From: a virus
Virus record (IMG/VR): IMGVR_UViG_3300037246_000385
Coordinates: 1-23,909 of that record
Strand: one strand, 5' to 3'
DNA: 23,909 nucleotides
In this document: positions 370 through 22,317 of the stretch, piece after piece
How the letters are laid out: each line of letters opens with the position of its first letter
Position numbering within the stretch: position 1 is the stretch's first letter
Position numbers and translations under genes: made by a program
Notes under the pieces: generated by a model
Told to the model about the DNA's origin: nothing
What the model saw: the letters and a program-made list of their open reading frames with translations, nothing else
Databases searched by the model: none

Positions 370-657
370 ATGGCTAGTATAGGTATGATATTGAAAACCT
401 TGGCATGTCTGCTGAAACTTAAATGCAAGCATACTTTTGATATGGTTGATTTGGAGCAAACCGGCATTCCAGAATTAGAACCACCTGAGACAAGAGGGTA
501 TGAAGAATGGGAACGATATTTCACTGCAATATATAAGCATGAATCCGTGACTAGAAGAGTGAAATGGCCTTGTTCAAAATGTGGCAAAGTATTCTATGCC
601 CATTGTGGGTTAGACATTGCACATGAAGGGAATATAGTAAGAAAGAAAAAGGCTTAA
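370..657 (+). CDS. small cysteine-containing protein upstream of terminase, unknown function
   Basis: This encodes 95 residues starting at the ATG that directly follows the upstream TAA. Its own stop overlaps the terminase start in TAATG. Metal-binding residues are arranged as CLLKLKCKH near residues 13-21 and CSKCGKVFYAHCG near 68-80, so a zinc-ribbon or zinc-knuckle fold is plausible. The middle is charged and probably helical (GYEEWERYFTAIYKHE). The small terminase subunit usually sits in this place, but no helix-turn-helix can be recognised, so I do not call it TerS. It has no clear Shine-Dalgarno site and may depend on translational coupling with the gene before it. Confidence 0.6.
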   Translation: MASIGMILKTLACLLKLKCKHTFDMVDLEQTGIPELEPPETRGYEEWERYFTAIYKHESVTRRVKWPCSKCGKVFYAHCGLDIAHEGNIVRKKKA

Positions 658-2384
658 TGGAACTAACCGATAACGACATAAAACAGTTAAACACCTTTGA
701 GAATTTCCTTAGTTTTCAGCCAACTTGGATATTCAGGGCGTTTATAAACTGCCCCAATAGGGTAATAGGACTATTTACTGGCAATCAGTACGGCAAGACC
801 AACTCTGCCATGTATCAGTATGTTTTAAGGGTATTAGGCGTACATCCTATTCCAGAAAAGAACGTACTTTATTTTGAATGTCCGAATAAGCATTACTACT
901 CGATTAAGACTAGGCCAGAAGATAATGTTTGTACTGAATGTGGAGAAAAGCTAGAGATACATAAGCGCAAGTCTAGGACTTATAGGCTTTGTGCTGAAAC
1001 ACTGCCAGGTGATAAGGGTGATACAGGTAAGGAAGGTACTTCTTCTGAAATAAAGAATACTGTTTATCCTGCACTAAAAACATGGCTACCTTCTATGTTA
1101 ATTAAGAAGGACATAACATTTAGAAACCCAGCCATGATAGTTAAAGACCCTAATGCAGGGATGGAATTCGGGGATTTGACTTATGAAGGTGGAGACATAA
1201 TATTTGAGTTTGTATCTTACAATCAGTCTACACAAAGTACAGCAGGAGTACAGCGACTAGGATGTTATTGTGACGAAGAACCGCCAAGTGATTTCTACAA
1301 GGAGCAGTTACCACGACTCTTACAGGAGAATGGTGACTTTATAATAGGTCTTACGCCTGCTTCCTATATCTCTTGGACTTATGATGAGATATTTGAAAAG
1401 GCAAGCATTTATTATCGCAGTAAAGTAATAGTAGACTACCTTGCTAAAGAAGGGCAGACAGTTAAGCAGATTGAAAAGACTGATTTTAATCTTGACATAG
1501 CAGTATTACAGGCCGCAACGGATGACAACCCTACGCTTGACCTTGATGTTATAGATGAGATGTTTAAGCACTATGACGACCCTGATGATATAGCAATTAG
1601 ACGTTATGGGATATTCAAACAGGTATCAGGTAGGATATTTAAGGATTTTGAGTATAGTACGCACTTTATAAATGGGGAGAAATATTTTCCTGATGGGATT
1701 CCTAGAGATGGGTGGGTTCACGCAAGGGGCATAGATTACCATCCACAGACCCCTTGGGCTAGTTCTTCGATGAGCCTGTCACCCACGGATGAGGCATTTG
1801 TATGGATTGATTTTAATCCTTCACCTGAGAAGTTGACAACAAAGGAGATAGCAAAGGAAGTGGCTCTCATGGGCAAGGATTACAAGTTTACACTTAATAT
1901 TATTGACCCGCTTGTTAAGGCAACAAGTGATGGTGGTGTAACCACGCTAGATGACTTTAATGGTGCTTTTTACGAATATAAGCAAGAGAACATAGGTACT
2001 GGTGGCTATTGGCAGGTTTGGGATACAAAAGGTGAAAAAGGTAGGGATGCTATAAGGACAAGACTTAAAAACTCTTCTAAAGTTGGAAAACCTTTTAACA
2101 ACAAGGTAGTTAAGGATGGCAGAACTCAATATCTTCCTACTTTATGGATTCTAGGTAATTGCAAAAATACAGCACAATCTATGAGACAGTGGAGATGGGA
2201 AGAATGGGCAGACCCTAAATCCAGAAACACTAAAGATGCGAAGAACAAGCCAATGCAAAAGTGGAGTCATTTCTGTATGGTTATAGAAGCTATATTTAAA
2301 GAGCCTGCGTTTAGGGCTAGAGACACTTCATATAGACCACCAGCACCAAGACAACACAATTACTTTAAGGGTAGGGGTAGATAA
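657..2384 (+). CDS. terL: terminase large subunit (packaging ATPase and nuclease)
   Basis: This 575-residue protein is the DNA-packaging motor. It hydrolyses ATP to pump DNA through the portal and cuts the concatemer. A Walker A-like loop GNQYGKT lies at 42-48, a Walker B-like strand ending in CDEEP at about 205-209 (D206, E207), and a coupling-motif candidate GLTPAS at 231-236. In the C-terminal nuclease half, acidic candidates are D360 (ARGID) and D417 (NIIDP); a third nuclease acid is not obvious. Between Walker A and B is a Cys/His insertion (C75, H79, C92, C95) that looks like a zinc ribbon. Length is normal for the family. The start is fixed by the TAATG overlap with the upstream gene, and the stop overlaps the portal start the same way. 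Confidence 0.93.
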   Translation: MELTDNDIKQLNTFENFLSFQPTWIFRAFINCPNRVIGLFTGNQYGKTNSAMYQYVLRVLGVHPIPEKNVLYFECPNKHYYSIKTRPEDNVCTECGEKLEIHKRKSRTYRLCAETLPGDKGDTGKEGTSSEIKNTVYPALKTWLPSMLIKKDITFRNPAMIVKDPNAGMEFGDLTYEGGDIIFEFVSYNQSTQSTAGVQRLGCYCDEEPPSDFYKEQLPRLLQENGDFIIGLTPASYISWTYDEIFEKASIYYRSKVIVDYLAKEGQTVKQIEKTDFNLDIAVLQAATDDNPTLDLDVIDEMFKHYDDPDDIAIRRYGIFKQVSGRIFKDFEYSTHFINGEKYFPDGIPRDGWVHARGIDYHPQTPWASSSMSLSPTDEAFVWIDFNPSPEKLTTKEIAKEVALMGKDYKFTLNIIDPLVKATSDGGVTTLDDFNGAFYEYKQENIGTGGYWQVWDTKGEKGRDAIRTRLKNSSKVGKPFNNKVVKDGRTQYLPTLWILGNCKNTAQSMRQWRWEEWADPKSRNTKDAKNKPMQKWSHFCMVIEAIFKEPAFRARDTSYRPPAPRQHNYFKGRGR

Positions 2385-4339
2385 TGGCAAAGAAAAAACA
2401 GTCAACGCCAAAGCATAGATTCGATAAGAGAATAGAAGATGCGGTAGCTTCTACTGTAGTTGATAGTGAATATCGAACTGCACAATCCAACAACACTGAT
2501 GCCAATGATGACTTTGAGGCGTTTGTAGACCTATTCGACTCAGAAAGAACTGAGCGAGAATATGATTGGATGAGTGACATATCTCTACCTGAATTTACTT
2601 CTCATATGCTTACTCAATGCTCTATTGACGTAGACCAGTATTTTCAGACTAGGGATTTCGTAGAGGCGTACCTACAAGATGAATCACCAGAAGCAGTAGC
2701 ACAAGCAAGTGCAGCCAAAGAACTTATAAATAGAACACTCAACCAAAAGCATCTCCATCACTACCAGAAGTATGTAAGGGCTAAGTTGATTAACCACCTT
2801 CAGGGTAATGTGTATATAGAATGTTGGTGGGAGCAAGAGACTAAGAGGGGCATTGTAGGCACTGAGACTATTGTTGAAGAACTCGATGTAGATGAGTTTG
2901 GCAACCCAATGATAGACTTTGAAGTGCAGATACCTGCGAGGCGTGTATTTGAAGTTGATGTAGAGGATGATATACCAGCAGTAGATAGGTTTAATTATGA
3001 AGTATATGACCCCAGAAATGTGTTTACTGACAACCAATATGTTTATTCTCTTCAGGATAAGCAGTATGTAATATTCAGGCTTGAAAGGACTTTAGATGAC
3101 CTTAAAATAGAGCAAGCCAAGCATGGTTACTTCAACCTTGATGTTGTAGAAGATTTGCAGATAAATGGTGACACGGAAGCTAGGAGAGACACCAAGAAAG
3201 ATGATAAGACTGTACCTGATAAGACGCCATCTAAGCAGATGGATATTCTTAGGCGTTATGGTAAGTTCTGGACTCTTGTTGATGTAAAAGAAGATGGTAG
3301 TGTTAAGGTAAAGCCGGGGCTTGATATAAATGGCGACCCTAAAGATGATGCCGAGCTTCTCGAAGTTCTTATCACTTACGCCTTGGTTGGTAGTAGTAAG
3401 GTAATGATAGGTTACCACCTTACTCCTTATCTTGATGCCAATGACCAGCCTTTTAGGCCCATCCTGAGAGGATTATGTTATGTCCACCCAACTAACGATG
3501 AAGGGCTTGGCGATGGTAAGTCATCTAGGGAATTACAGGTTGCCATTAATGATACGTTTAATATAAGTAATGATAGGGTTCAGCTTGCCACAATACCTAC
3601 ATTCATAACTAAAAAGTATGCTGTAGATGATAATGACACTTTGTACCTTGAACCTGGGCATAATATAGAGCTGGAAGACCCTAGTGACTTTAAAGAGCTT
3701 AAAATATCTGACAATATAGGTGGTGCGCTAAATCAGATAGCCATGCTTACAGGTGCTATGGATAAGGCTACCTCTATATTCCCTTCTACTATGGGAGCGC
3801 AGGTAAAGGCATCGACTACTGCTACAGCTATTGCTGGTGCTGAATCTCGTAGTGATATGAGGACTAATTACAAGTCTGTGACATTTGAGCATACAGCCTT
3901 ATCTGAAATGTATTGGATGATACAGCAAATGACTTATAGGTTTGCCCATGAAGAAACTGCATTTAAGTTGATGGGGGATAAGCTGTTTGATTTCGACCCA
4001 AGCAAGGACTACTACTATAAGCCGGTAAGTTCTTCTATTGAATCAGAACAATCCAAGGCTAATAAAATAAGAAGTTATATACAAATACTTGGTTATATTT
4101 CTTCTATTCCCCACCCTGATTCTGTTAATCAGATTAATCAGGTACTTACTAAGATATACGAATATATGGGTGATGAGTACGTTAGTTTTGGGAATAGTTT
4201 ATTGAATCCAAACATACCACTTACACCTCAAGGAGCGCAAGGTGGTAGTCCTGAAGCACTAGGTGGCGGTGGAGCAAGCAATCAGTTTGGTGGCGAGCAA
4301 TCAGGTGCAGAGCAATTTGTGAGGGAGGCTCAGTTCTAG
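2384..4339 (+). CDS. portal (head-tail connector) protein
   Basis: This 651-residue protein follows the terminase with a TAATG overlap. In tailed phages a large protein in this position forms the twelve-subunit portal ring at the capsid vertex. Supporting features are an acidic N-terminal region with WMSDISLPEF, a long helical and beta middle section, a segment like GLGDGKSSRELQVAIND near residues 375-391 that resembles the podovirus-type portal core, and a flexible Gly/Gln/Ala-rich C-terminus ending in SGAEQFVREAQF. Size fits the larger podovirus portals. The call rests on position, length and general pattern; I could not run a profile comparison. Confidence 0.85.
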   Translation: MAKKKQSTPKHRFDKRIEDAVASTVVDSEYRTAQSNNTDANDDFEAFVDLFDSERTEREYDWMSDISLPEFTSHMLTQCSIDVDQYFQTRDFVEAYLQDESPEAVAQASAAKELINRTLNQKHLHHYQKYVRAKLINHLQGNVYIECWWEQETKRGIVGTETIVEELDVDEFGNPMIDFEVQIPARRVFEVDVEDDIPAVDRFNYEVYDPRNVFTDNQYVYSLQDKQYVIFRLERTLDDLKIEQAKHGYFNLDVVEDLQINGDTEARRDTKKDDKTVPDKTPSKQMDILRRYGKFWTLVDVKEDGSVKVKPGLDINGDPKDDAELLEVLITYALVGSSKVMIGYHLTPYLDANDQPFRPILRGLCYVHPTNDEGLGDGKSSRELQVAINDTFNISNDRVQLATIPTFITKKYAVDDNDTLYLEPGHNIELEDPSDFKELKISDNIGGALNQIAMLTGAMDKATSIFPSTMGAQVKASTTATAIAGAESRSDMRTNYKSVTFEHTALSEMYWMIQQMTYRFAHEETAFKLMGDKLFDFDPSKDYYYKPVSSSIESEQSKANKIRSYIQILGYISSIPHPDSVNQINQVLTKIYEYMGDEYVSFGNSLLNPNIPLTPQGAQGGSPEALGGGGASNQFGGEQSGAEQFVREAQF

Positions 4340-5286
4340 TGCCATCCTTTAGAGACATATTAGATGCTTACAAAGGCTTTACTGAGGCGGGAGAACTTGC
4401 CATATCTTCTACTGCTGAATCTTTGCCACAGGCGATTAGGCAACCACTAGAAGCCGTAGGGAGAGGTGTGGAAGAGTTGTCTATGTCTGGTGCTGATGTA
4501 TTTATGGGTATGCCACCACAAGTGGGAATATTTGCTGGAAGAAGGGCTTTGGGTTTTGCAAAAGCACCAAATAAGTTCTCTAGTATGGCTGATAAGATGC
4601 AAAGGTTTGAGATAGACGATTCTCTTGCAAAAACTACAGGTAAAGCCAAGAGCATTAAGGGTGAACCTTGGAGGGTGGCAGAAACCAAGAGGGTTTTAGG
4701 GAAACTAGATGAAGTAATAGACCATCCTGAATTGTATAAGCAATACCCAGAGCTAAAAAACTATAAAGTTGTGATTAATAGATATGGTAGTAAAGGAAAT
4801 GCCTCTATAGATGATGTCAATAAAGTTATATATGTAGACGGTGTTAAGCCTCGTACTGGTATAACCAATACCGTATTCCATGAAGTCCAACATGCTGTGC
4901 AAGACATAGAGGGGTTTGTTAAAGGTGGTAGCCCTGAAGTCGGATTAGGACTTGGTCAAATAAGAAACCCCCAATCGGAAGCAGCTACGAAAGCAATACA
5001 TATTTTAAAATGGCGAGGCAAGAACGATAAAGCTTTGCAAGCATCTCTTAAAGAGCTAACTCCAGACATAAGAGAATTAGCTGAAGAATGGGCAAAAACA
5101 AAAAATATAAATGAATTGAAAAAGTTAAAAGGTAGTATAGATTTTGAAGCTTACCAACGCTTGGCAGGGGAGATAGAGGCTAGGGATGTTGAGGCGAGAA
5201 TGGCACTTTCTCCACAGCAAAGGCAAGCTATACAGCCTCTTTCATCGGAAGCGGCAATACCATTAGAGCAATTCATAGTAAGATAA
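4339..5286 (+). CDS. zincin-like metallopeptidase-domain protein after portal
   Basis: This encodes 315 residues from a GTG at 4339-4341 that overlaps the portal TAG (TAGTG). The core motif is VFHEVQHAVQDIEGF: H181, E182 and H185 form an HExxH zinc site, followed by Gly-rich sequence. A distal LAGEIEARDVEAR segment (275-287) could supply a third, acidic ligand at E278 or E280. The pair HE[IV]QHA..(D/E).EGF plus LAGE(I/V)EAR matches my memory of large polyvalent-protein-associated zincin domains found in phage and other mobile-element proteins. The region before it (HPELYKQYPELKNYKV) also fits. The first 75 residues contain small-residue and hydrophobic stretches. Substrate is unknown: it may mature the head, be injected, or act on host proteins. 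Confidence 0.7.
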   Translation: MPSFRDILDAYKGFTEAGELAISSTAESLPQAIRQPLEAVGRGVEELSMSGADVFMGMPPQVGIFAGRRALGFAKAPNKFSSMADKMQRFEIDDSLAKTTGKAKSIKGEPWRVAETKRVLGKLDEVIDHPELYKQYPELKNYKVVINRYGSKGNASIDDVNKVIYVDGVKPRTGITNTVFHEVQHAVQDIEGFVKGGSPEVGLGLGQIRNPQSEAATKAIHILKWRGKNDKALQASLKELTPDIRELAEEWAKTKNINELKKLKGSIDFEAYQRLAGEIEARDVEARMALSPQQRQAIQPLSSEAAIPLEQFIVR

Positions 5287-5295: not shown

Positions 5296-5598
5296 TTGGA
5301 TAATTTAACACCGACAGATATAGAGAAGTTTGTTGCTAAAGAAGGTAAAAAGGCACAAAGAACGCTCTCTATTCTAGGAAAGAACGAGCAATTACTAAAT
5401 GCAATACAGACTCCCATAGGTCAAGAGCTATTAAGCGATGCTCTACAAAACATAGATTGCTTGCTAGAGAAGATAATTGACGAGAAGGCAGATGAGAAAG
5501 ACAGGGCTGATTACAGAGCATTAAGGACTCTCACTATAAGATGGACTGAAAAGATACACGCTTACCAAGAAGCATTAATGAAGGTGAAAAATGTCTAG
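5296..5598 (+). CDS. small helical protein of the portal-capsid region, unknown function
   Basis: This encodes 100 residues from a TTG start with an AAGGAG site 5 nt upstream. It is charged and almost wholly helical, with segments TPIGQELLSDALQNID and LRTLTIRWTEKIHAYQEAL. Short helical proteins of this kind are common between portal and scaffold genes in environmental phages, but I know of no assigned function. Its last 8 bases overlap the start of the next small gene (ATG at 5591), which suggests coupled translation. Confidence 0.7.
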   Translation: MDNLTPTDIEKFVAKEGKKAQRTLSILGKNEQLLNAIQTPIGQELLSDALQNIDCLLEKIIDEKADEKDRADYRALRTLTIRWTEKIHAYQEALMKVKNV

Positions 5599-5777: not shown

Positions 5778-6581
5778 ATGAGTGAAGAAGTTACAACCGA
5801 AGCCGTAGAGCCAGAAGTCGCTGTTGAAGCCACTTCGGAAGCTACCGCAGAAGGGGTGACAGAAGAAGTTGTAGAGGTAAGTGCAACCGAAGCTGAAATA
5901 CCATCTGAGGAAGCACCACAAGCCGTACAACAAGCTCAAGAAGTAGAAGCACCTGTTGAGCCAGAGGATAATGCTGTTCGTTCACAACTTGGTCGCAAGG
6001 TCAAGTATATGGAAGACACCATGAATGAAACCCTTGGCAAGCTCGATGCTTTTCTTCAAAGCCAAAGCCAACCACAGTATCAACAACCTCAATATGCGCC
6101 ACCCGTTCAAGAGGAAGTTGAGGAAGAGTTCTTGACTAACAGGAATGTTGGAAGTGTGATTGAAAACTACATGACTCAGCACCAGAGCCAACAAAGTCAA
6201 GAGCAGGCACGGTATGAGAATGATTATGTAAAGATGACTAACAGGCTTGCCTCAGAAGTTGATGAAACTGATTACACTGAAATTAATACTGAAATGATGA
6301 CAAACTTTAATGTTCGTCATGGCAATGATGCTTCGGCTGATGCTGAAAGAAACTGGTTAAGGGCTGAAAGGGCTGTGCTTAGAAAAAGACAAGCCAATCC
6401 TGTCAGGAAAGCACCTCTAAAGCAGGAAAAGCCTTCTGCCCCTCTTGGTGGTGGTAGTGTGCAAAATGCGTCTGCAAAGAAAGTAAAAATGCCTAAATTT
6501 GATGATGCCACTCTTGCATATATGAAGAAAACGGGCATGACCGAGGAAAGGGCAGCTAAAATATTGGGAAACGCTCGCTAA
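5778..6581 (+). CDS. scaffold-like (capsid assembly) protein
   Basis: This 267-residue protein has the composition of a phage scaffold. The first 65 residues are strongly acidic and low-complexity (Glu, Val, Ala, Thr). A Gln/Pro-rich linker lies around 94-112 (SQPQYQQPQYAPP). The second half is helical and charged. The C-terminus is basic and ends in a short helix (MTEERAAKILGNAR), the type of tail that usually contacts the capsid protein. A GGGAGG ribosome site precedes the ATG. Position between portal and major capsid protein agrees. A scaffold would guide procapsid assembly and then leave or be degraded. No protease domain is fused to it. Confidence 0.75.
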   Translation: MSEEVTTEAVEPEVAVEATSEATAEGVTEEVVEVSATEAEIPSEEAPQAVQQAQEVEAPVEPEDNAVRSQLGRKVKYMEDTMNETLGKLDAFLQSQSQPQYQQPQYAPPVQEEVEEEFLTNRNVGSVIENYMTQHQSQQSQEQARYENDYVKMTNRLASEVDETDYTEINTEMMTNFNVRHGNDASADAERNWLRAERAVLRKRQANPVRKAPLKQEKPSAPLGGGSVQNASAKKVKMPKFDDATLAYMKKTGMTEERAAKILGNAR

Positions 6582-6598: not shown

Positions 6599-7003
6599 AT
6601 GAGCAGAAGTAGAGCTAGAAGCAGCCGTAAGATTAAAGGTGAAGCCAGAACCATCCCTCTGAAGGGTAATAGTATTAGGGGCAATGGTGAGGATTCGGGT
6701 AAATATTATCGCTGTTGGAATTGTGGCTTTACGGTAGACTCTACCAGAGATTCAATAGGTGGAGAGCATAGTGGGTCTGGTGACAAGCAACTTGATTTCC
6801 ATGAACCAGCCTTGGGCGCAAAAGATACTTCGGATGAAGTGAATAATCTTTCCGTCTTAGGTGGTGATATAGGACATTTTGAGGTGGCACTAGAAAATGG
6901 GTCTGATGGTACGCCTAAAGAAATTAGGCATGACTTTCAATCCAACATAATAGGTGGTTGTCCGATGTGTGGTACTTTTAACTATAAGGGCGACTACAAA
7001 TAA
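6599..7003 (+). CDS. zinc-ribbon protein between scaffold and capsid genes
   Basis: This encodes 134 residues with two Cys pairs, YRCWNCGF (about 38-45) and GCPMCGTFNYKGDYK at the very end, likely forming one zinc ribbon with a long insertion rich in Gly, Asp and Ser. The N-terminus is basic (SRSRARSSRKIKGEAR). The only start in frame before the first Cys pair is ATG 6599; it has no Shine-Dalgarno site, so translation may depend on the upstream scaffold gene 17 nt away. Small zinc-ribbon proteins recur next to capsid genes in uncultured phages, but their role is unknown to me. Confidence 0.65.
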   Translation: MSRSRARSSRKIKGEARTIPLKGNSIRGNGEDSGKYYRCWNCGFTVDSTRDSIGGEHSGSGDKQLDFHEPALGAKDTSDEVNNLSVLGGDIGHFEVALENGSDGTPKEIRHDFQSNIIGGCPMCGTFNYKGDYK

Positions 7004-7867: not shown

Positions 7868-8791
7868 ATGGGTGTTCCAATTACATCCTCGCAGCAAGTT
7901 AGGCTTCTTCAAGAGAACTTGCGTGAGGTAGGTGAAAAAAGGTACGAAGGAATTAAGTCTATGATTCCTGAAACATTCAGGGTTGTCGATTCCGATAGCG
8001 CATGGGAAGAGTTTTACGATGTAGGCTCTCTCCCTGATATTCCTGAATTTAACGGCAAGTTGTCCACGCTTTCTGTGGCTGCTGGCTTTCATAAGATTAT
8101 AGAGCCAAAGGAATTTGGTGCTAAGGTCAATATCGAAAGGAAGTTGATAGACGATAAGAAGTATGCTGTTCTTGATAACTTTGCAGGGAAGCTTATGGAC
8201 TCTGCAATGAGAACAAGGGAAAAGGCTGGAGTAAAGCTTTTCTCCAATTCTTTCTCTACTGCTTACGACTTTATGACCAAGAACGAGGAAGGCGTAGCAC
8301 TATGTTCTAGCTCTCATACCACTAAGTCTGGTGCTTCCACCGCTAATGGTTTTGATAACGCTGGTTCTTCCGCTATTAACAAGGTTTCCATTGCAGCTAC
8401 TAAAATCCTTATGAAGAAATTTAGGGATGACCAAGCTGAGAGAATACAAGTCTCTGACAACCTTGGGATAGTGGTTCCTGACGAGTTGGTTGATATAGCC
8501 AATGAAGTTAATAGCACTCCTAAGTCTATGGACACTGCTGAAGGCAACATAAACACACAGTACAATCAGTACAAGATTATCCCTTATTCACTTCTGGGGG
8601 ATACTAGTACTACTGACTGGTTTATGGTTGACCTTGACAAGCAGAAGGAAAGTGCTATCTGGCTAGACCGTATCAAGCCTGAAATAAGCTCAACTGTTGA
8701 TTTCAATACTTACCTGAAGGAAATCTCTGTCTACATGAGACATGCCTATGGTTATATTGATTGGCGTTGGGTTTACGGTCACAACGTATAA
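7868..8791 (+). CDS. major capsid protein (HK97-fold type)
   Basis: This encodes 307 residues with an AGGAGG site at 7854-7859 just before ATG 7868. The pattern fits phage major capsid proteins of the HK97 fold: a helical N-terminus (QQVRLLQENLREVGEKRYEG), an aromatic and acidic beta region, a long spine-like helix region with NFAGKLMDSAMRTREKAGVK, and a C-terminal segment with WLDRIKPEISSTVDF and YIDWRWVYGHNV. Position downstream of scaffold and a decoration-like gene agrees. I see no N-terminal delta domain or cleavage site, which is consistent with the separate scaffold. Capsids would be built from many copies. Confidence 0.82.
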   Translation: MGVPITSSQQVRLLQENLREVGEKRYEGIKSMIPETFRVVDSDSAWEEFYDVGSLPDIPEFNGKLSTLSVAAGFHKIIEPKEFGAKVNIERKLIDDKKYAVLDNFAGKLMDSAMRTREKAGVKLFSNSFSTAYDFMTKNEEGVALCSSSHTTKSGASTANGFDNAGSSAINKVSIAATKILMKKFRDDQAERIQVSDNLGIVVPDELVDIANEVNSTPKSMDTAEGNINTQYNQYKIIPYSLLGDTSTTDWFMVDLDKQKESAIWLDRIKPEISSTVDFNTYLKEISVYMRHAYGYIDWRWVYGHNV

Positions 8792-14944: not shown

Positions 14945-15664
14945 ATGGCACTTTTTTCACAACCTGGAGGTAGGGCAACGGGGAGGTTTGGAACTTTTGA
15001 GAGGGAAGCTGAAGCTAGGAGAAAAGCTGGAATTGCTATAGCTGGCGGTCAAGATAAAGGTCAAGCGCCTGAGTTCAGCTTGGAGCGTGTTAGAGCCTTG
15101 TCACAAGAACAAATGTCTCCTCAAATTAGTGCTGTAAGGAGGGCGATTCAAGGCGTTCAGGCTGGTCGTTTTGCCAATCCTCTTGCTAGAAGGGAAGCCA
15201 TCAGGGGTGCTGTCAGGGGTGGTGGTGAAGCTCTTGCTGGTATTCAAGCCGCAGGCACAAGGCAAGGACTAGCACTTCATCGTACTGAATTTGATGCCCA
15301 AATGGCAGAGTTTAGAAGGCAGGAAGAAGAAAGGTTGAGAGAAGAACAGAGGCAGACATTCAGAAGGCGTGATTTGGGTTCTTCGACCTACTTGCCTCCT
15401 GGTATGCCTGGAAGTGGTGGTAGACTTAGCCCCTTCACGGGCTTTGCCCCAGCGCCAGCACCTACAATGCCTATTCGCCTTCCAGGTGGTAGCGTAAGCA
15501 ATAGATTACTTGAAGGGACATCTTTTGCAACTGCCGGTGGTGGTGGAAAGCAATTGGGTGATATTGGCTTTTCATTTGGTAGTGAGCCAATAAATGTTGC
15601 ACCCACATTCGCACCTGATGATAGGCAACATGAATTACTGACACAATCTTTTGGGAGGACATAA
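14945..15664 (+). CDS. probable internal virion protein (helical, low-complexity end)
   Basis: This encodes 239 residues with an AGGAGG site just upstream, overlapping the previous stop. The N-terminal 140 residues are Arg, Ala, Gln and Glu-rich helices (for example MAEFRRQEEERLREEQRQ), suited to coiled coils. The C-terminal 100 residues are Gly/Pro/Ala-rich and disordered. It heads three large genes in a row and ends in a TAATG overlap with the next, a layout like the internal-core or ejection-protein block of podoviruses. Function is inferred from place and composition only. Confidence 0.5.
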   Translation: MALFSQPGGRATGRFGTFEREAEARRKAGIAIAGGQDKGQAPEFSLERVRALSQEQMSPQISAVRRAIQGVQAGRFANPLARREAIRGAVRGGGEALAGIQAAGTRQGLALHRTEFDAQMAEFRRQEEERLREEQRQTFRRRDLGSSTYLPPGMPGSGGRLSPFTGFAPAPAPTMPIRLPGGSVSNRLLEGTSFATAGGGGKQLGDIGFSFGSEPINVAPTFAPDDRQHELLTQSFGRT

Positions 15665-17445
15665 TGGCACGAAGAGTATCGACTCCACTGGGAGATAAAT
15701 TGTCCAACTTGACTGCTGAAGATATAAAGAATTTAGCATTGCTGGGAGTTGGAGGAACAGCACTTCTAGGCGAAAGGCCAGCCATATCTAGGTCAGAAAG
15801 AGTGCGTGGGCCATTTCCAACTAAAGTTCTTGGGCCGTTCCCTACTAGAGTCATACCAGAGGAAAGTCAGCTAATTGGAAGAAGTATAGCCCCAGGTGAA
15901 ACCTCTGAAAGAATACAGGGGCCGTTCCCTACTAGAGTTAAAGGGCCGTTCCCTACTAGAGCTGTCGGGCCATTTGCTAGATATTTCAGGGAAGGAGATG
16001 AACAATTTCAACCTACATCGCTACCTCCATCTCTTGAATCACAGCCATCACAGGCACAAGCAGGTGCGCCAGCCCCTCAACAGGAAAGGTTCTATGAATG
16101 GTTCGATGAGCAAGGATTGTACGGCCCGAAAGGACAACGCCATGCCACCAATAGGCCAGAAACAATACCACAGGGGGTAGATGTTACGCAAATACCCTTT
16201 GAAGCACCTTCCATAGAATCAGACCAAGCCAAGTTATTTCTAAGGGAAAGTGGGGATATTTCTCCTGAAACTATAGCAATGATGGGAAGGGCTAGTGAGA
16301 CTGATGAGGCAAGGGAAAACAGGATAGTTAGAGAGATAGTAGCAGAAACAGGCAAAAGCCCAGCAGAGGCTCGTCAGGCTTTCAGGTCAGCACGAAGCGA
16401 AATATCTGGAGAACCTCTAGCCCCTCCAATAATGTCTTTTGAGGAAAAGACTGCCACTAGGAATCAGATTGCTCAAAATGCACAGAGGATGCTTAATAGT
16501 ACCCAAGATGTTAATGAGAGGAATCAGATTATATCTGAATTTAATCAGACATTAAAAATGCACGGGCTAGATAAGATTGAAAAGCCAAAGGCAGAAAAGG
16601 TAGGCACTCCTAGTGCATTAGCAAAACTCATCAATGAGAGGGCAGCACTGAAAGCCGCAGGGGTACCTGACGACGACTCTAGAATAAAGGCTTATGATAG
16701 TAAAATATCTGGTACTGATATTGACATTGAAGGGTTAACCCAAGACGAGATTGACGTTTTCGGAGTACTCTTAGCCACTACTGGGAAAATGGCAAATGTC
16801 GGAAGAGGAAAGCTGGCCTCAAAGGTGCGGATAGCAATAGCTAAAAGCGCAGCTGGGCATGCTCTCAGGGACGACCCCGATGCTCCATCAGAGATACCTG
16901 GTAAAACACCTATGGAAGCCGCCTTTGAAGGAATGATTGGCCCCCAAGCTGATACTAGGTCTATTCAGATTGCTCAAAATTTCCTTGAAAAGCAGATAGG
17001 AGCGATGGGTAGTTTTGTAACCAATATAGAATTTCAAGTGGATAAGGTTAAAGAATTATCAAAAGACCTTAAAACATTCGATGTTCGTATACTCAACTTG
17101 CCGCTTCGTGCTGTAAGAGGGCGTATCAAGGGAAGCCCACTACAAGCCAAATATGATTTATATTTAACTGAAATTGAAAATGAAATAGGTAAGTTAGCCA
17201 GTGGTTCTTCAGCATCTATTGCTGAACTTTCCGTGGGCGCACAAGAAAGATGGGCAAAGATACATGATAAGAATTTAAGCGTAAAAGACATGATTTCTCT
17301 ATTAGAAGAGACATCAAATGCCGCAAGGATGAGGGAGCTGAGTGTCCAGCAACAATTGGATAAAACTAGGACAAAGATGAGGACAAGAGGTGGATTGACA
17401 GCACCAACAACTGGAAGTAAATTTAAAATAATCTCGGTGGAATAG
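15664..17445 (+). CDS. large internal virion / ejection-type protein with GPFPTR repeats
   Basis: This 593-residue protein starts in a TAATG overlap. Near its N-terminus are five copies of a short proline motif: GPFPTKV at 49, GPFPTRV at 57 and 86, GPFPTRA at 94 and a degenerate GPFAR at 102. After a Pro/Gln-rich linker the protein is long, helical and charged, with probable coiled coils. The last 120 residues (YLTEIENEIGKLASG, LSVKDMISLLEETSNAARMR) resemble a helical tail domain I recall from phage virion proteins. By position it is a candidate internal-core or DNA-ejection protein. The repeats may be a binding or processing motif. Confidence 0.5.
   Translation: MARRVSTPLGDKLSNLTAEDIKNLALLGVGGTALLGERPAISRSERVRGPFPTKVLGPFPTRVIPEESQLIGRSIAPGETSERIQGPFPTRVKGPFPTRAVGPFARYFREGDEQFQPTSLPPSLESQPSQAQAGAPAPQQERFYEWFDEQGLYGPKGQRHATNRPETIPQGVDVTQIPFEAPSIESDQAKLFLRESGDISPETIAMMGRASETDEARENRIVREIVAETGKSPAEARQAFRSARSEISGEPLAPPIMSFEEKTATRNQIAQNAQRMLNSTQDVNERNQIISEFNQTLKMHGLDKIEKPKAEKVGTPSALAKLINERAALKAAGVPDDDSRIKAYDSKISGTDIDIEGLTQDEIDVFGVLLATTGKMANVGRGKLASKVRIAIAKSAAGHALRDDPDAPSEIPGKTPMEAAFEGMIGPQADTRSIQIAQNFLEKQIGAMGSFVTNIEFQVDKVKELSKDLKTFDVRILNLPLRAVRGRIKGSPLQAKYDLYLTEIENEIGKLASGSSASIAELSVGAQERWAKIHDKNLSVKDMISLLEETSNAARMRELSVQQQLDKTRTKMRTRGGLTAPTTGSKFKIISVE
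15808..15981 (+). repeat. tandem-like DNA repeats encoding GPFPTR motifs
   Basis: GGGCCGTTCCCTACTAGAG occurs exactly three times, at 15832-15850, 15919-15937 and 15943-15961. A diverged copy lies at 15808-15826 and a shortened one at 15967-15981. Spacing is 24 nt within each close pair. The identity at DNA level, including silent positions, points to recent duplication or gene conversion within the coding region. Confidence 0.85.
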
Positions 17446-17446
17446 C

Positions 17447-18997
17447 ATGCCTACCTATACAGTAGAATCCCCAACGGGGCAGAGAATAAAATTTGATTGG
17501 ACTGATGTGAACCCTCCTACCGATGTAGACATGGAAGAGATATTTGCACAAGCAGGTGGAGGGCAGGAACAGCCCCTTTTGGAGGGGCAAGAAGCTAGGA
17601 GGGCCGCATTACCAGAAGCTCCATTAACCGCAGGGGAAGTAGCTGGTGGTGCAGTAGAATCATTTGTCCCTAGTGGTATTGAAGCCGCTCAAGCCATAGG
17701 CGAAGCAGTACTACATCCTGTCGAAACAGTTAAGGGCATCACTCAAGTTATCAGGGGTGCAGGCGGTAAAGCAAGTGAAGCCTTTTTAGGAGCCTTGGGT
17801 GTGCAAGCACCAGATATTGAAAGTGCGACACCAGAGGTTAGACAAGCCCTTGAGCAATCGGAAGAAGAAAAAGCGAGTTTTAGTGCTGTGGCTGATTTCT
17901 TCAAACAGAGATATGGGGGCATAGAAGAAGCAAAGCGCACTATTGCCACTGACCCCGTTGGGTTCATGGCAGACCTATCTTTATTGTTGAGGGGTGGCGG
18001 TGGCATTGCAGGTAAAATTCCAAAGGCAGGCAAGGTAGCCGAGACACTCCGGCAAGTTGGCAGGGCGGTAGAGCCAGTTAGGGCTGTGGCAGAAACCATT
18101 AAATTGCCATTGAAGGGTGCTGGAGTTGTAGCTGAAACCGTAGCTAAGGTTCCATTTAAGGGAGCCATCCCTAAAGTAGTGGGAGGCTTATCGCCAGAAA
18201 GATTAGCCGAGACTTTATTCCAGAGTGCTTTCAAAATGTCTAAAAAACTATCCCCTAGCGAGAGAGCGACCTTAACAAAAATAGGCATTAGAGATAAAAT
18301 ATTCCCGACACAACATGCTTTGGATGTTGTAGATAGAAAGATTAGCATCCTTGATAAGAAAGTAAGCAGGGCTATTTCTAGGAGTAGTAGGAAGTTCGAT
18401 GATGTGTCGGCAAACGAAGTAATCAAAAGCCTTGATGAACTAGAAACATTTTACAAGAATCAAGCCGTAGGTGGCCCTAAAGCACTAGAGACAATTCGAG
18501 AGATAAAGGAAACATTCGTTAAGGAGAGAGGGCAACGTATCCCGATTGCTAAGGCACAAAAAATAAAGCAAGCAACACAGCAAAGACTAAGAAAAGACTT
18601 TGGGGAAATGAAAACGCTTCAGAAAGAAGCACAGAAGGGGTTGTCTCATGGTTTGAGGGAGGAAATAGCAAAGATAGTTCCAGAAGCAGCTACTCTAAAC
18701 AAAGAACTCGCCTCTTATATCCGATTCCAGGAAGCACTTGAATCTGCGGTAGCTAGCATGCAAAACAAGGACATTCTTAGCTTGGGGCAAAAAGTAGTTA
18801 TTTCTGGTGCAGGACAGGGGCCATTATTCAAGATAACTGCTGGATTACTTGATGTGCCTAAAGTTAAGATAGCACTAGCTGTGGCATTAAGTGAGTCAAC
18901 TAAAATCTCTAAAGTAGAATGGGTTAAAAGATTAGGGGCACTTAAAGAGCCTGCATTCCAAGCAGGCAGAATACAACAACAAACGGGAGAAAGATGA
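17447..18997 (+). CDS. probable ejection / internal virion protein
   Basis: This encodes 516 residues starting 1 nt after the previous stop. The N-terminus TYTVESPTGQRIKF followed by VNPPTDVDMEEIFAQAG is a beta segment plus linker that I associate with phage internal proteins. Residues about 60-270 are Ala/Gly/Val-rich with amphipathic and mildly hydrophobic helices (GFMADLSLLLRGGGGIAG), as expected for a protein that can enter a membrane during DNA ejection. The remainder is charged coiled coil. A late hydrophobic stretch (VKIALAVALSES) lies near 475. No enzymatic motif such as a transglycosylase is visible. The role is inferred. Confidence 0.5.
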   Translation: MPTYTVESPTGQRIKFDWTDVNPPTDVDMEEIFAQAGGGQEQPLLEGQEARRAALPEAPLTAGEVAGGAVESFVPSGIEAAQAIGEAVLHPVETVKGITQVIRGAGGKASEAFLGALGVQAPDIESATPEVRQALEQSEEEKASFSAVADFFKQRYGGIEEAKRTIATDPVGFMADLSLLLRGGGGIAGKIPKAGKVAETLRQVGRAVEPVRAVAETIKLPLKGAGVVAETVAKVPFKGAIPKVVGGLSPERLAETLFQSAFKMSKKLSPSERATLTKIGIRDKIFPTQHALDVVDRKISILDKKVSRAISRSSRKFDDVSANEVIKSLDELETFYKNQAVGGPKALETIREIKETFVKERGQRIPIAKAQKIKQATQQRLRKDFGEMKTLQKEAQKGLSHGLREEIAKIVPEAATLNKELASYIRFQEALESAVASMQNKDILSLGQKVVISGAGQGPLFKITAGLLDVPKVKIALAVALSESTKISKVEWVKRLGALKEPAFQAGRIQQQTGER

Positions 18998-21888: not shown

Positions 21889-22317
21889 TCATTCAAACAC
21901 AAATGGATTAATAAACCCCTTCACATTATCCCGTGTATTCCAAGGTCGTACTTTAATGTAAGCATCCTGCTCTATAGCTTTGCTTTCATCGGTTGTCCTA
22001 GAGCCACCACCTGAAGCACCCATGCACAACTTAGGCGTTATGGCATACTCTGCATGGATAATCCTATCACCACTTTTATTTGTCCAGAACACCAGGCAGC
22101 CAGCAAACGGGTGCGGCACTGTCCTCTTTCCCTCTAGTCTATCCCATAGCCCTTGTGCTGTCCAATCACCCTTTCTAGGCAGAATCCCAACTGACTTTAA
22201 TATCTCTATACAGAAACCAGAACAATCAAATCCAGCAACAGGGTTATCTCCCCCCCAGAGATAGGGCTTTCCGTACATGCTCCACGCAACTTTATTGGCA
22301 ATTTCTACTTTAGTCAT
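21889..22317 (-). CDS. NlpC/P60-type cell-wall hydrolase (probable endolysin)
   Basis: This 142-residue protein carries the family signature: GKPYLWGGDNPVAGFDCSGF, with catalytic Cys at position 32, and HAEYAI with the likely catalytic His at 88. The third polar residue is not certain. The family cleaves peptide bonds in peptidoglycan stem peptides. No signal peptide or wall-binding domain is present, so it would need a holin, and a two-helix gene lies directly downstream. AAGGAGG at 22326-22332 gives the start. A virion-associated role is less likely given this position in the leftward cluster. Confidence 0.8.
   Translation of the reverse strand: MTKVEIANKVAWSMYGKPYLWGGDNPVAGFDCSGFCIEILKSVGILPRKGDWTAQGLWDRLEGKRTVPHPFAGCLVFWTNKSGDRIIHAEYAITPKLCMGASGGGSRTTDESKAIEQDAYIKVRPWNTRDNVKGFINPFVFE

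What the first reader, a model, noticed from the sequence alone, without database searches (positions are those of the whole stretch)
4339..5286. Zincin-like protein takes the place usually held by a prohead protease
The gene directly after the portal encodes HEVQH and LAGEIEARD motifs of a metallopeptidase-like domain, while no serine prohead protease (S14/S78/S49 type) is visible in the capsid block. It could be a new kind of capsid maturation enzyme, or an injected effector carried in the head.
Basis: partly seen in the sequence, partly recalled or inferred. Interest (0 to 1): 0.55.

Follow-up and report, generated by a model that had tools for sequence, protein, structure and literature searches.

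The report
Accessory phage zincin beside portal gene
The gene after this phage's portal encodes a lone copy of a protease-like zinc-enzyme domain that phages often carry in very large proteins predicted to be injected into the host; it looks like optional cargo rather than a new enzyme for maturing the capsid.

Summary
The ORF at 4339-5286 (315 aa) is real. It overlaps the portal stop by one base and carries HEVQH (181-185) and GEIEAR (277-282). It is a stand-alone zincin-like metallopeptidase of the kind found in large phage "polyvalent" proteins. Related domains lie in Pseudomonas phage AF gp16 and in the 3787-aa H66 gp60, which its record calls verified in virions by mass spectrometry. The predicted fold is nearest IrrE-type zincins, at a modest score.

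The "prohead protease substitute" reading is not supported. Of 36 phage contigs found with the portal, 33 run past its end; 0 of 33 have a zincin there or elsewhere on the contig, and their recognised capsid genes keep the window's order. In 27 of 33 nothing lies between the portal and the next gene. In one the slot holds an epimerase-like gene, in two an unrelated 106-aa ORF. Five capsid proteins compared align from residue 1, with or without the zincin.

Best reading: an accessory cargo gene, probably packaged and injected, acting in trans on host or co-injected proteins. Packaging, zinc binding, proteolysis and target are inferred, not shown. Novelty is low: a solo member of a known kind.

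The parts
4339..5286 (+). stand-alone zincin-like metallopeptidase gene (315 aa), accessory to the head block
4576..4659 (+). residues 80-107, remnant resembling LPD23 (RFEIDD); below detection by the Pfam LPD23 model
   Evidence: aligned to LPD23-bearing stretches of AF gp16 and H66 gp60; E91 and D94 at 90% or more in A2; P0001 itself has no LPD23 hit
4879..4893 (+). HEVQH, residues 181-185: presumed zinc ligands H181 and H185, general base E182
   Evidence: in register with IrrE HEISH
5167..5184 (+). GEIEAR, residues 277-282: presumed third zinc ligand E278 on the second helix (model helix 276-289)
   Evidence: two relatives read GEAVAR, which points to E278 rather than E280
2384..4339 (+). 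portal protein (SU10-like)
657..2384 (+). terminase large subunit (weak Terminase_6N match; conserved in relatives)
5296..5598 (+). conserved 100-aa gene that directly follows the portal in zincin-less relatives
5778..6581 (+). acidic, probable scaffold protein (position and composition only; no family match above cut-off)
7868..8791 (+). major capsid protein (Mu gpT-like), same N terminus in zincin-less relatives

Best explanation
An accessory phage gene, placed between the portal and the next conserved head gene, that encodes a solo zincin-like metallopeptidase of the type embedded in large phage polyvalent proteins. Shown: its conserved motifs, its relatives, a zincin-like predicted topology, and absence of the gene from related phages with the same head genes. 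Inferred: H181, H185 and E278 bind zinc and E182 activates water; the protein is made with the head proteins, packaged, and delivered with the DNA; it then cuts host proteins or co-injected proteins in trans, because it has no large cargo of its own to release.
For: Related domains in AF gp16 (2213 aa, beside LPD22 and LPD23) and H66 gp60 (3787 aa; record note: verified by mass spectrometry as part of the virion). PHROG families of giant proteins match P0001 and 59-60 of 62 aligned members. Of the 62, 36 match LPD23, 26 DUF6782 putative metallopeptidase, 10 Peptidase_M78/IrrE. The model (pLDDT 79.5, pTM 0.72) has an N-terminal helix, strands 143-147, 156-158 and 163-167, the HExxH helix 172-191 and the GE helix 276-289. 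IrrE/PprI rank first in VIA-align (Z 6.2, 6.1, 5.0), and the A2 sequence profile also picks IrrE, with HExxH in register, at a weak E of 0.04. Absent from 33 of 33 related contigs past the portal (positive controls). The slot is variable: one epimerase, two 106-aa ORFs, 27 empty, 3 unresolved. Solo copies flank recognised portals in other phages: directly after P22-type portals in L027 and L028, directly before SU10- or P22-type portals in L043, L045, L048, L090 and L094.
Against: No virion proteomics for this phage or for any solo relative. Foldseek against the PDB gave no match at E <= 0.001 (best 1.4), and unrelated FERM-domain rows reach Z 4.9 in VIA-align. P0001 has no Pfam hit above cut-off. 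GC content 0.41 equals that of neighbouring genes, so no sign of recent foreign origin. H66 gp60 aligns only over residues 39-198, up to just past HExxH, in the search. In the tree the window copy joins long forms with weak support (83).
Confidence: 0.62

Rival explanations
1. A new kind of prohead protease that matures scaffold or capsid in this phage.
For: Position in the head block next to the portal; no serine protease matched in the window.
Against: 0 of 33 related contigs carry it although they keep the scaffold and capsid genes; capsid N termini align from residue 1 in 5 of 5 compared. The contigs are fragments, so an unlinked copy in relatives is possible. From general knowledge, tailed phages such as P22 and T7 assemble with a scaffold and no protease.
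Confidence: 0.06
2. A zincin that processes another large virion or ejected protein of the same phage before or during packaging, as proposed for the polyvalent-protein metallopeptidases (for example P1 DdrB, PMC5512222 section 8).
For: The family is proposed to self-process polyvalent proteins; solo copies lie in packaging blocks; L070 has a PBECR5-bearing polyvalent-type gene next door.
Against: No large polyvalent protein was recognised in the window; the 593-aa and 516-aa late genes have no Pfam or PHROG match. A trans substrate has to be assumed.
Confidence: 0.2
3. A catalytically dead structural or internal head protein that keeps the zincin fold.
For: No activity has been shown for this protein; structural use of old enzyme folds is common in phages (general knowledge).
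Against: All presumed catalytic and zinc residues are intact, and conserved across very diverged relatives.
Confidence: 0.08
4. Not in the virion: a moron expressed late or in lysogeny that acts inside the producing cell.
For: The same slot in L016 carries an epimerase-like gene, which is not an obvious virion protein.
Against: The gene overlaps the portal stop by one base, suggesting co-translation with head genes; the best-studied embedded relative is recorded in virions.
Confidence: 0.2

Closest known systems
Zincin-like MPTase domain of phage polyvalent proteins (Iyer et al. 2017, PMC5512222)
   Same: HEXXH on one helix, glutamate on a following helix, variable insert between them, three-stranded core, found in phage late genes; relatives lie in giant proteins with LPD22, LPD23 or LPD3 domains.
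   Different: Here a single 315-aa protein without further recognised enzymatic domains. Its link to the paper's family rests on the description, not on a direct comparison with the paper's alignment, which was not available.
Pseudomonas phage H66 gp60 / F116-like giant virion protein, and phage AF gp16
   Same: Homologous stretch at 28% identity; H66 gp60 recorded as a virion protein.
   Different: 2213-3787 aa with several domains, encoded late in the structural block and not beside the portal.
IrrE/PprI (Peptidase_M78-like) zinc metallopeptidases
   Same: Best solved structures by both fold and profile, HExxH in register; 10 of 62 aligned members match Peptidase_M78.
   Different: Weak scores (Z 6.2; E 0.04); no helix-turn-helix regulator part; no family hit for P0001 itself.
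UniProt phage proteins named 'Large polyvalent protein associated domain-containing protein' such as A0A6J5PUX6 (420 aa)
   Same: Foldseek E 1e-11 to the model, of solo-like size.
   Different: 25% identity; genomic position not examined.

Membership tests
Zincin-like MPTase domain of phage polyvalent proteins | HEXXH motif on a helix | tested here: met
   HEVQH 181-185 within model helix 172-191
Zincin-like MPTase domain of phage polyvalent proteins | third-ligand glutamate on a second C-terminal helix | tested here: met
   E278 in model helix 276-289; GE..AR in 70 and GE.ESR in 11 of 82 relatives. Zinc geometry itself not measured: no coordinates at hand.
[quoted passage not shown]
   element order of the predicted model; IrrE/PprI first in VIA-align but at modest Z
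Zincin-like MPTase domain of phage polyvalent proteins | membership of one of the 12 clades of Iyer et al. | not testable with these tools
   their alignment and tree files are not held
Polyvalent protein (whole protein) | two or more domains of disparate activity in one polypeptide | tested here: not met
   only one recognisable domain in 315 aa; so it carries the domain but is not itself filed as a polyvalent protein
LPD23 (PF18838) | match to the Pfam model above cut-off | tested here: not met
   no hit for P0001; 36 of 62 aligned relatives match at E <= 0.01
Prohead (capsid maturation) protease | serine protease fold of S14, S49, S77 or S78 type (types recalled) | tested here: not met
   no such match; zincin motifs instead
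Prohead (capsid maturation) protease | kept together with its capsid and scaffold genes in related phages | tested here: not met
   0 of 33 related contigs
Prohead (capsid maturation) protease | cleaves scaffold or capsid protein | not testable with these tools
   needs virion proteomics or an assay
Injected head effector | present in virions and delivered to the host | not testable with these tools
   only an embedded relative, H66 gp60, is recorded in virions
IrrE/ImmA (Peptidase_M78) | match to the Peptidase_M78 model | tested here: not met
   P0001 no hit; 10 of 62 relatives match at E <= 0.01

The most novel reading that the evidence does not exclude
Solo zincins of this clade form a recurrent portal-adjacent cargo class: several unrelated phage groups (SU10-like and P22-like portals) each placed a trans-acting metallopeptidase next to the portal, so that it is packaged and injected as a host-targeting protease, independent of polyvalent proteins.
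Probability: 0.3. Interest if true: 0.5.

Novelty: new member of a known kind. Interest (0 to 1): 0.2.

Why it matters
It corrects an attractive but wrong reading (a metallo-type prohead protease) and shows that the position behind the portal is an optional slot in this phage group. If solo zincins are injected, they are small, single-domain versions of an enzyme otherwise buried in 2000-5000-aa proteins, and so the easiest place to find out what phage polyvalent-protein metallopeptidases cut, which the 2017 proposal left open.

Tried and rejected
Prohead protease substitute: rejected on presence/absence in relatives and on the capsid N terminus.

Pfam, NCBIfam and PHROGs on P0001: no hit above a curated cut-off (DUF6782 at 12.4 bits against 27; an ObgE model at 0.009, taken as chance); PHROG hits only to giant proteins of unknown function. 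PDB by sequence: none with the single protein, IrrE at E 0.04 with the profile. Foldseek PDB: nothing at E <= 0.001.

Portal against the phage collection: no match at 1e-5; capsid: 2 records, annotations not opened. EBPR podovirus 3 has a solo relative (gp3, 335 aa); I thought its gp4 and gp5 were terminase and portal, but neither has a Pfam hit, so this is not used.

Neighbour survey: profiles grown from session sequences found terminase or portal in 20 of 49 loci with a zincin ORF under 900 aa and 1 of 33 with a longer one. This contrast is biased, because a long ORF fills most of the 20-kb locus; some hits lie 5-9 kb away; sensitivity is limited. Of 20 neighbour proteins scanned by Pfam, 6 were portals and 13 had no relevant hit (1 PBECR5).

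Tree: window copy groups with six long forms at 83% SH-aLRT, not a firm placement; solo/long label changes at least 3 times by starred branches (11 on the tree; shuffled mean 18.0).

Rows dropped: alignment A2 holds P0001 and 61 of 82 relatives. 14 lacked GE..A[RN] in the cut-out fragment, 6 were near-identical to kept rows (98.9-100%), and L076 was left out for its length. So A2's conservation of that motif is partly by selection; the unselected counts are those.

Genome-contig scan: 80 of 200 relatives kept, from many bacterial phyla and one archaeal record; used only to see spread, not analysed further.

Papers: PMC5512222 seen as abstract, outline, searched passages and sections 8 and 29. 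Searches for a metallo-type prohead protease and for ejected polyvalent metallopeptidases listed 0 papers; LPD23 listed 2 irrelevant ones; one search listed only PMC5512222; one search listed one paper, not opened. The library lacks most subscription journals.

Full report
The thing itself. The ORF 4339-5286 encodes 315 residues and begins with a GTG that overlaps the last base of the portal stop. It has one HExxH (HEVQH, 181-185) and, 96 residues after the first histidine, GEIEAR (277-282). Eight diverse relatives chosen without regard to the second motif have H181, E182, Q184, H185, Y272, G277, E278, A281, R282 and R287 invariant. Among 82 relatives, 70 keep GE..AR and 11 read GE.ESR; one is cut by its contig end; residue shuffles give GE..AR in 0.012 per protein. 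Two relatives read GEAVAR, which makes E278 the likelier third zinc ligand (inference).

What it is. Pfam and NCBIfam do not name the single protein. Its relatives do. Tblastn found 43 phage records, none covering 80% of it. The matched stretches lie in phage AF gp16 (2213 aa, with LPD22 and LPD23), in H66/F116-type giant proteins (H66 gp60, 3787 aa, LPD23 and LPD3, recorded as verified in the virion by mass spectrometry), and in EBPR podovirus 3 gp3 (335 aa, solo). In a 62-row alignment, 36 members match LPD23, 26 DUF6782 'putative metallopeptidase' and 10 Peptidase_M78, and 60 match the PHROG family phrog_13543. P0001 itself keeps only an LPD23-like stretch (RFEIDD) below detection.

Fold. 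AlphaFold2 on that alignment gave pLDDT 79.5 and pTM 0.72, with the element order expected of a minimal zincin and the GE motif on the helix after the variable insert. Foldseek against the PDB has no significant match. The VIA-align second look puts IrrE/PprI first (Z 6.2, 6.1, 5.0), with selecase and ArdC zincins lower, but FERM-domain rows, which align only to the insert helices 199-278, reach 4.9. The sequence profile independently picks IrrE (E 0.04, 0.34) with HExxH in register. Against predicted viral structures 14 matches have E <= 0.001, 7 of them named large polyvalent protein associated. No coordinates were available, so zinc geometry was not measured.

Is it a capsid-maturation enzyme? 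The portal found 9 related contigs alone and 36 contigs as a profile, including those 9. Three of 36 end at or inside the portal gene. Of the other 33, none has a zincin in the fetched locus, nor in the whole contig (9 contigs, 24; the search does find it in the window and in two other zincin contigs). In 27 of 33 the conserved 100-aa gene follows the portal with no ORF of 55 aa or more between; L014 and L015 have a 106-aa ORF first; L016 has an NAD-dependent epimerase family protein (Pfam 1.7e-53) and then ends; L189, L198 and L199 have ORFs of similar size to the usual genes without a BLAST match. The recognised genes otherwise keep the order terminase, portal, 100-aa gene, scaffold, zinc-ribbon protein, 271-aa protein, capsid; single genes escape detection in some contigs. 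Several of the 33 are near-copies (L192/L193/L206, L014/L015, L183/L204, L179/L180, L198/L199), so fewer than 33 independent phages are sampled, and all are fragments. Capsid proteins of the window and four zincin-less relatives align from the first residue. A capsid-maturation role would demand that relatives with the same head genes do without it. The zincin is therefore accessory here.

Where solo copies sit. Of the 82 relatives, 49 are in ORFs under 900 aa (some cut by contig ends) and 33 in longer ones up to 5118 aa. Pfam-recognised portals flank solo zincins directly in L027 and L028 (zincin just after a P22-type portal), L043 and L090 (before a P22-type portal), and L045, L048 and L094 (before an SU10-type portal); L001 and L002 have zincin, terminase, portal. 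So placement next to the packaging genes recurs in different phage groups. On the tree the solo and long forms are intermingled, with at least three changes forced by well-supported branches; the window copy joins long forms, weakly.

How it most likely works. Shown: motifs, relatives, fold topology by prediction, accessory status. From the published proposal (PMC5512222; abstract, passages, sections 8 and 29 seen): zincin-like domains are the commonest domain of phage polyvalent proteins, bind zinc through two histidines and a glutamate, and either self-process the polypeptide or attack host proteins after injection; solo forms of several such domains are noted near phage structural genes. 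Inferred here: with no cargo domains of its own, this protein would act in trans, after packaging and injection, on a host or co-injected protein. The rival that it processes another virion protein of the phage remains open.

Verdict. Interest is low to moderate; the useful point is that a solo, small version exists beside the portal in several phage groups and could be used to test what these metallopeptidases cut.

Noticed in passing
L016:5767-6585: In a related phage contig the slot directly after the portal holds an NAD-dependent epimerase/dehydratase family gene (cut by the contig end); its terminase is also split into two ORFs (2116-3246, 3247-3918).
   Followed up: partly
window 6599-7003: Conserved gene between scaffold and capsid with two CxxC pairs (zinc-ribbon-like, weak Pfam hits below cut-off) kept in most relatives; role in the head block unknown.
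   Followed up: no
window 21889-22317 (-): Small NlpC/P60 family protein (Pfam 8.8e-09) on the opposite strand; also matches a minor tail protein PHROG.
   Followed up: no
window 15664-18997: Two large late genes (593 and 516 aa) with no Pfam or PHROG match; candidate internal virion proteins and possible substrates of the zincin.
   Followed up: no
L070:1779-3683: A gene with a PBECR5 nuclease domain lies directly after a zincin gene, another polyvalent-type domain beside it.
   Followed up: no
L024, L037, L063: A recurring trio of genes (about 1740-1790 aa, 700-730 aa, then a 554-aa zincin) followed by an ORF on the opposite strand; looks like an ejection-protein set.
   Followed up: no
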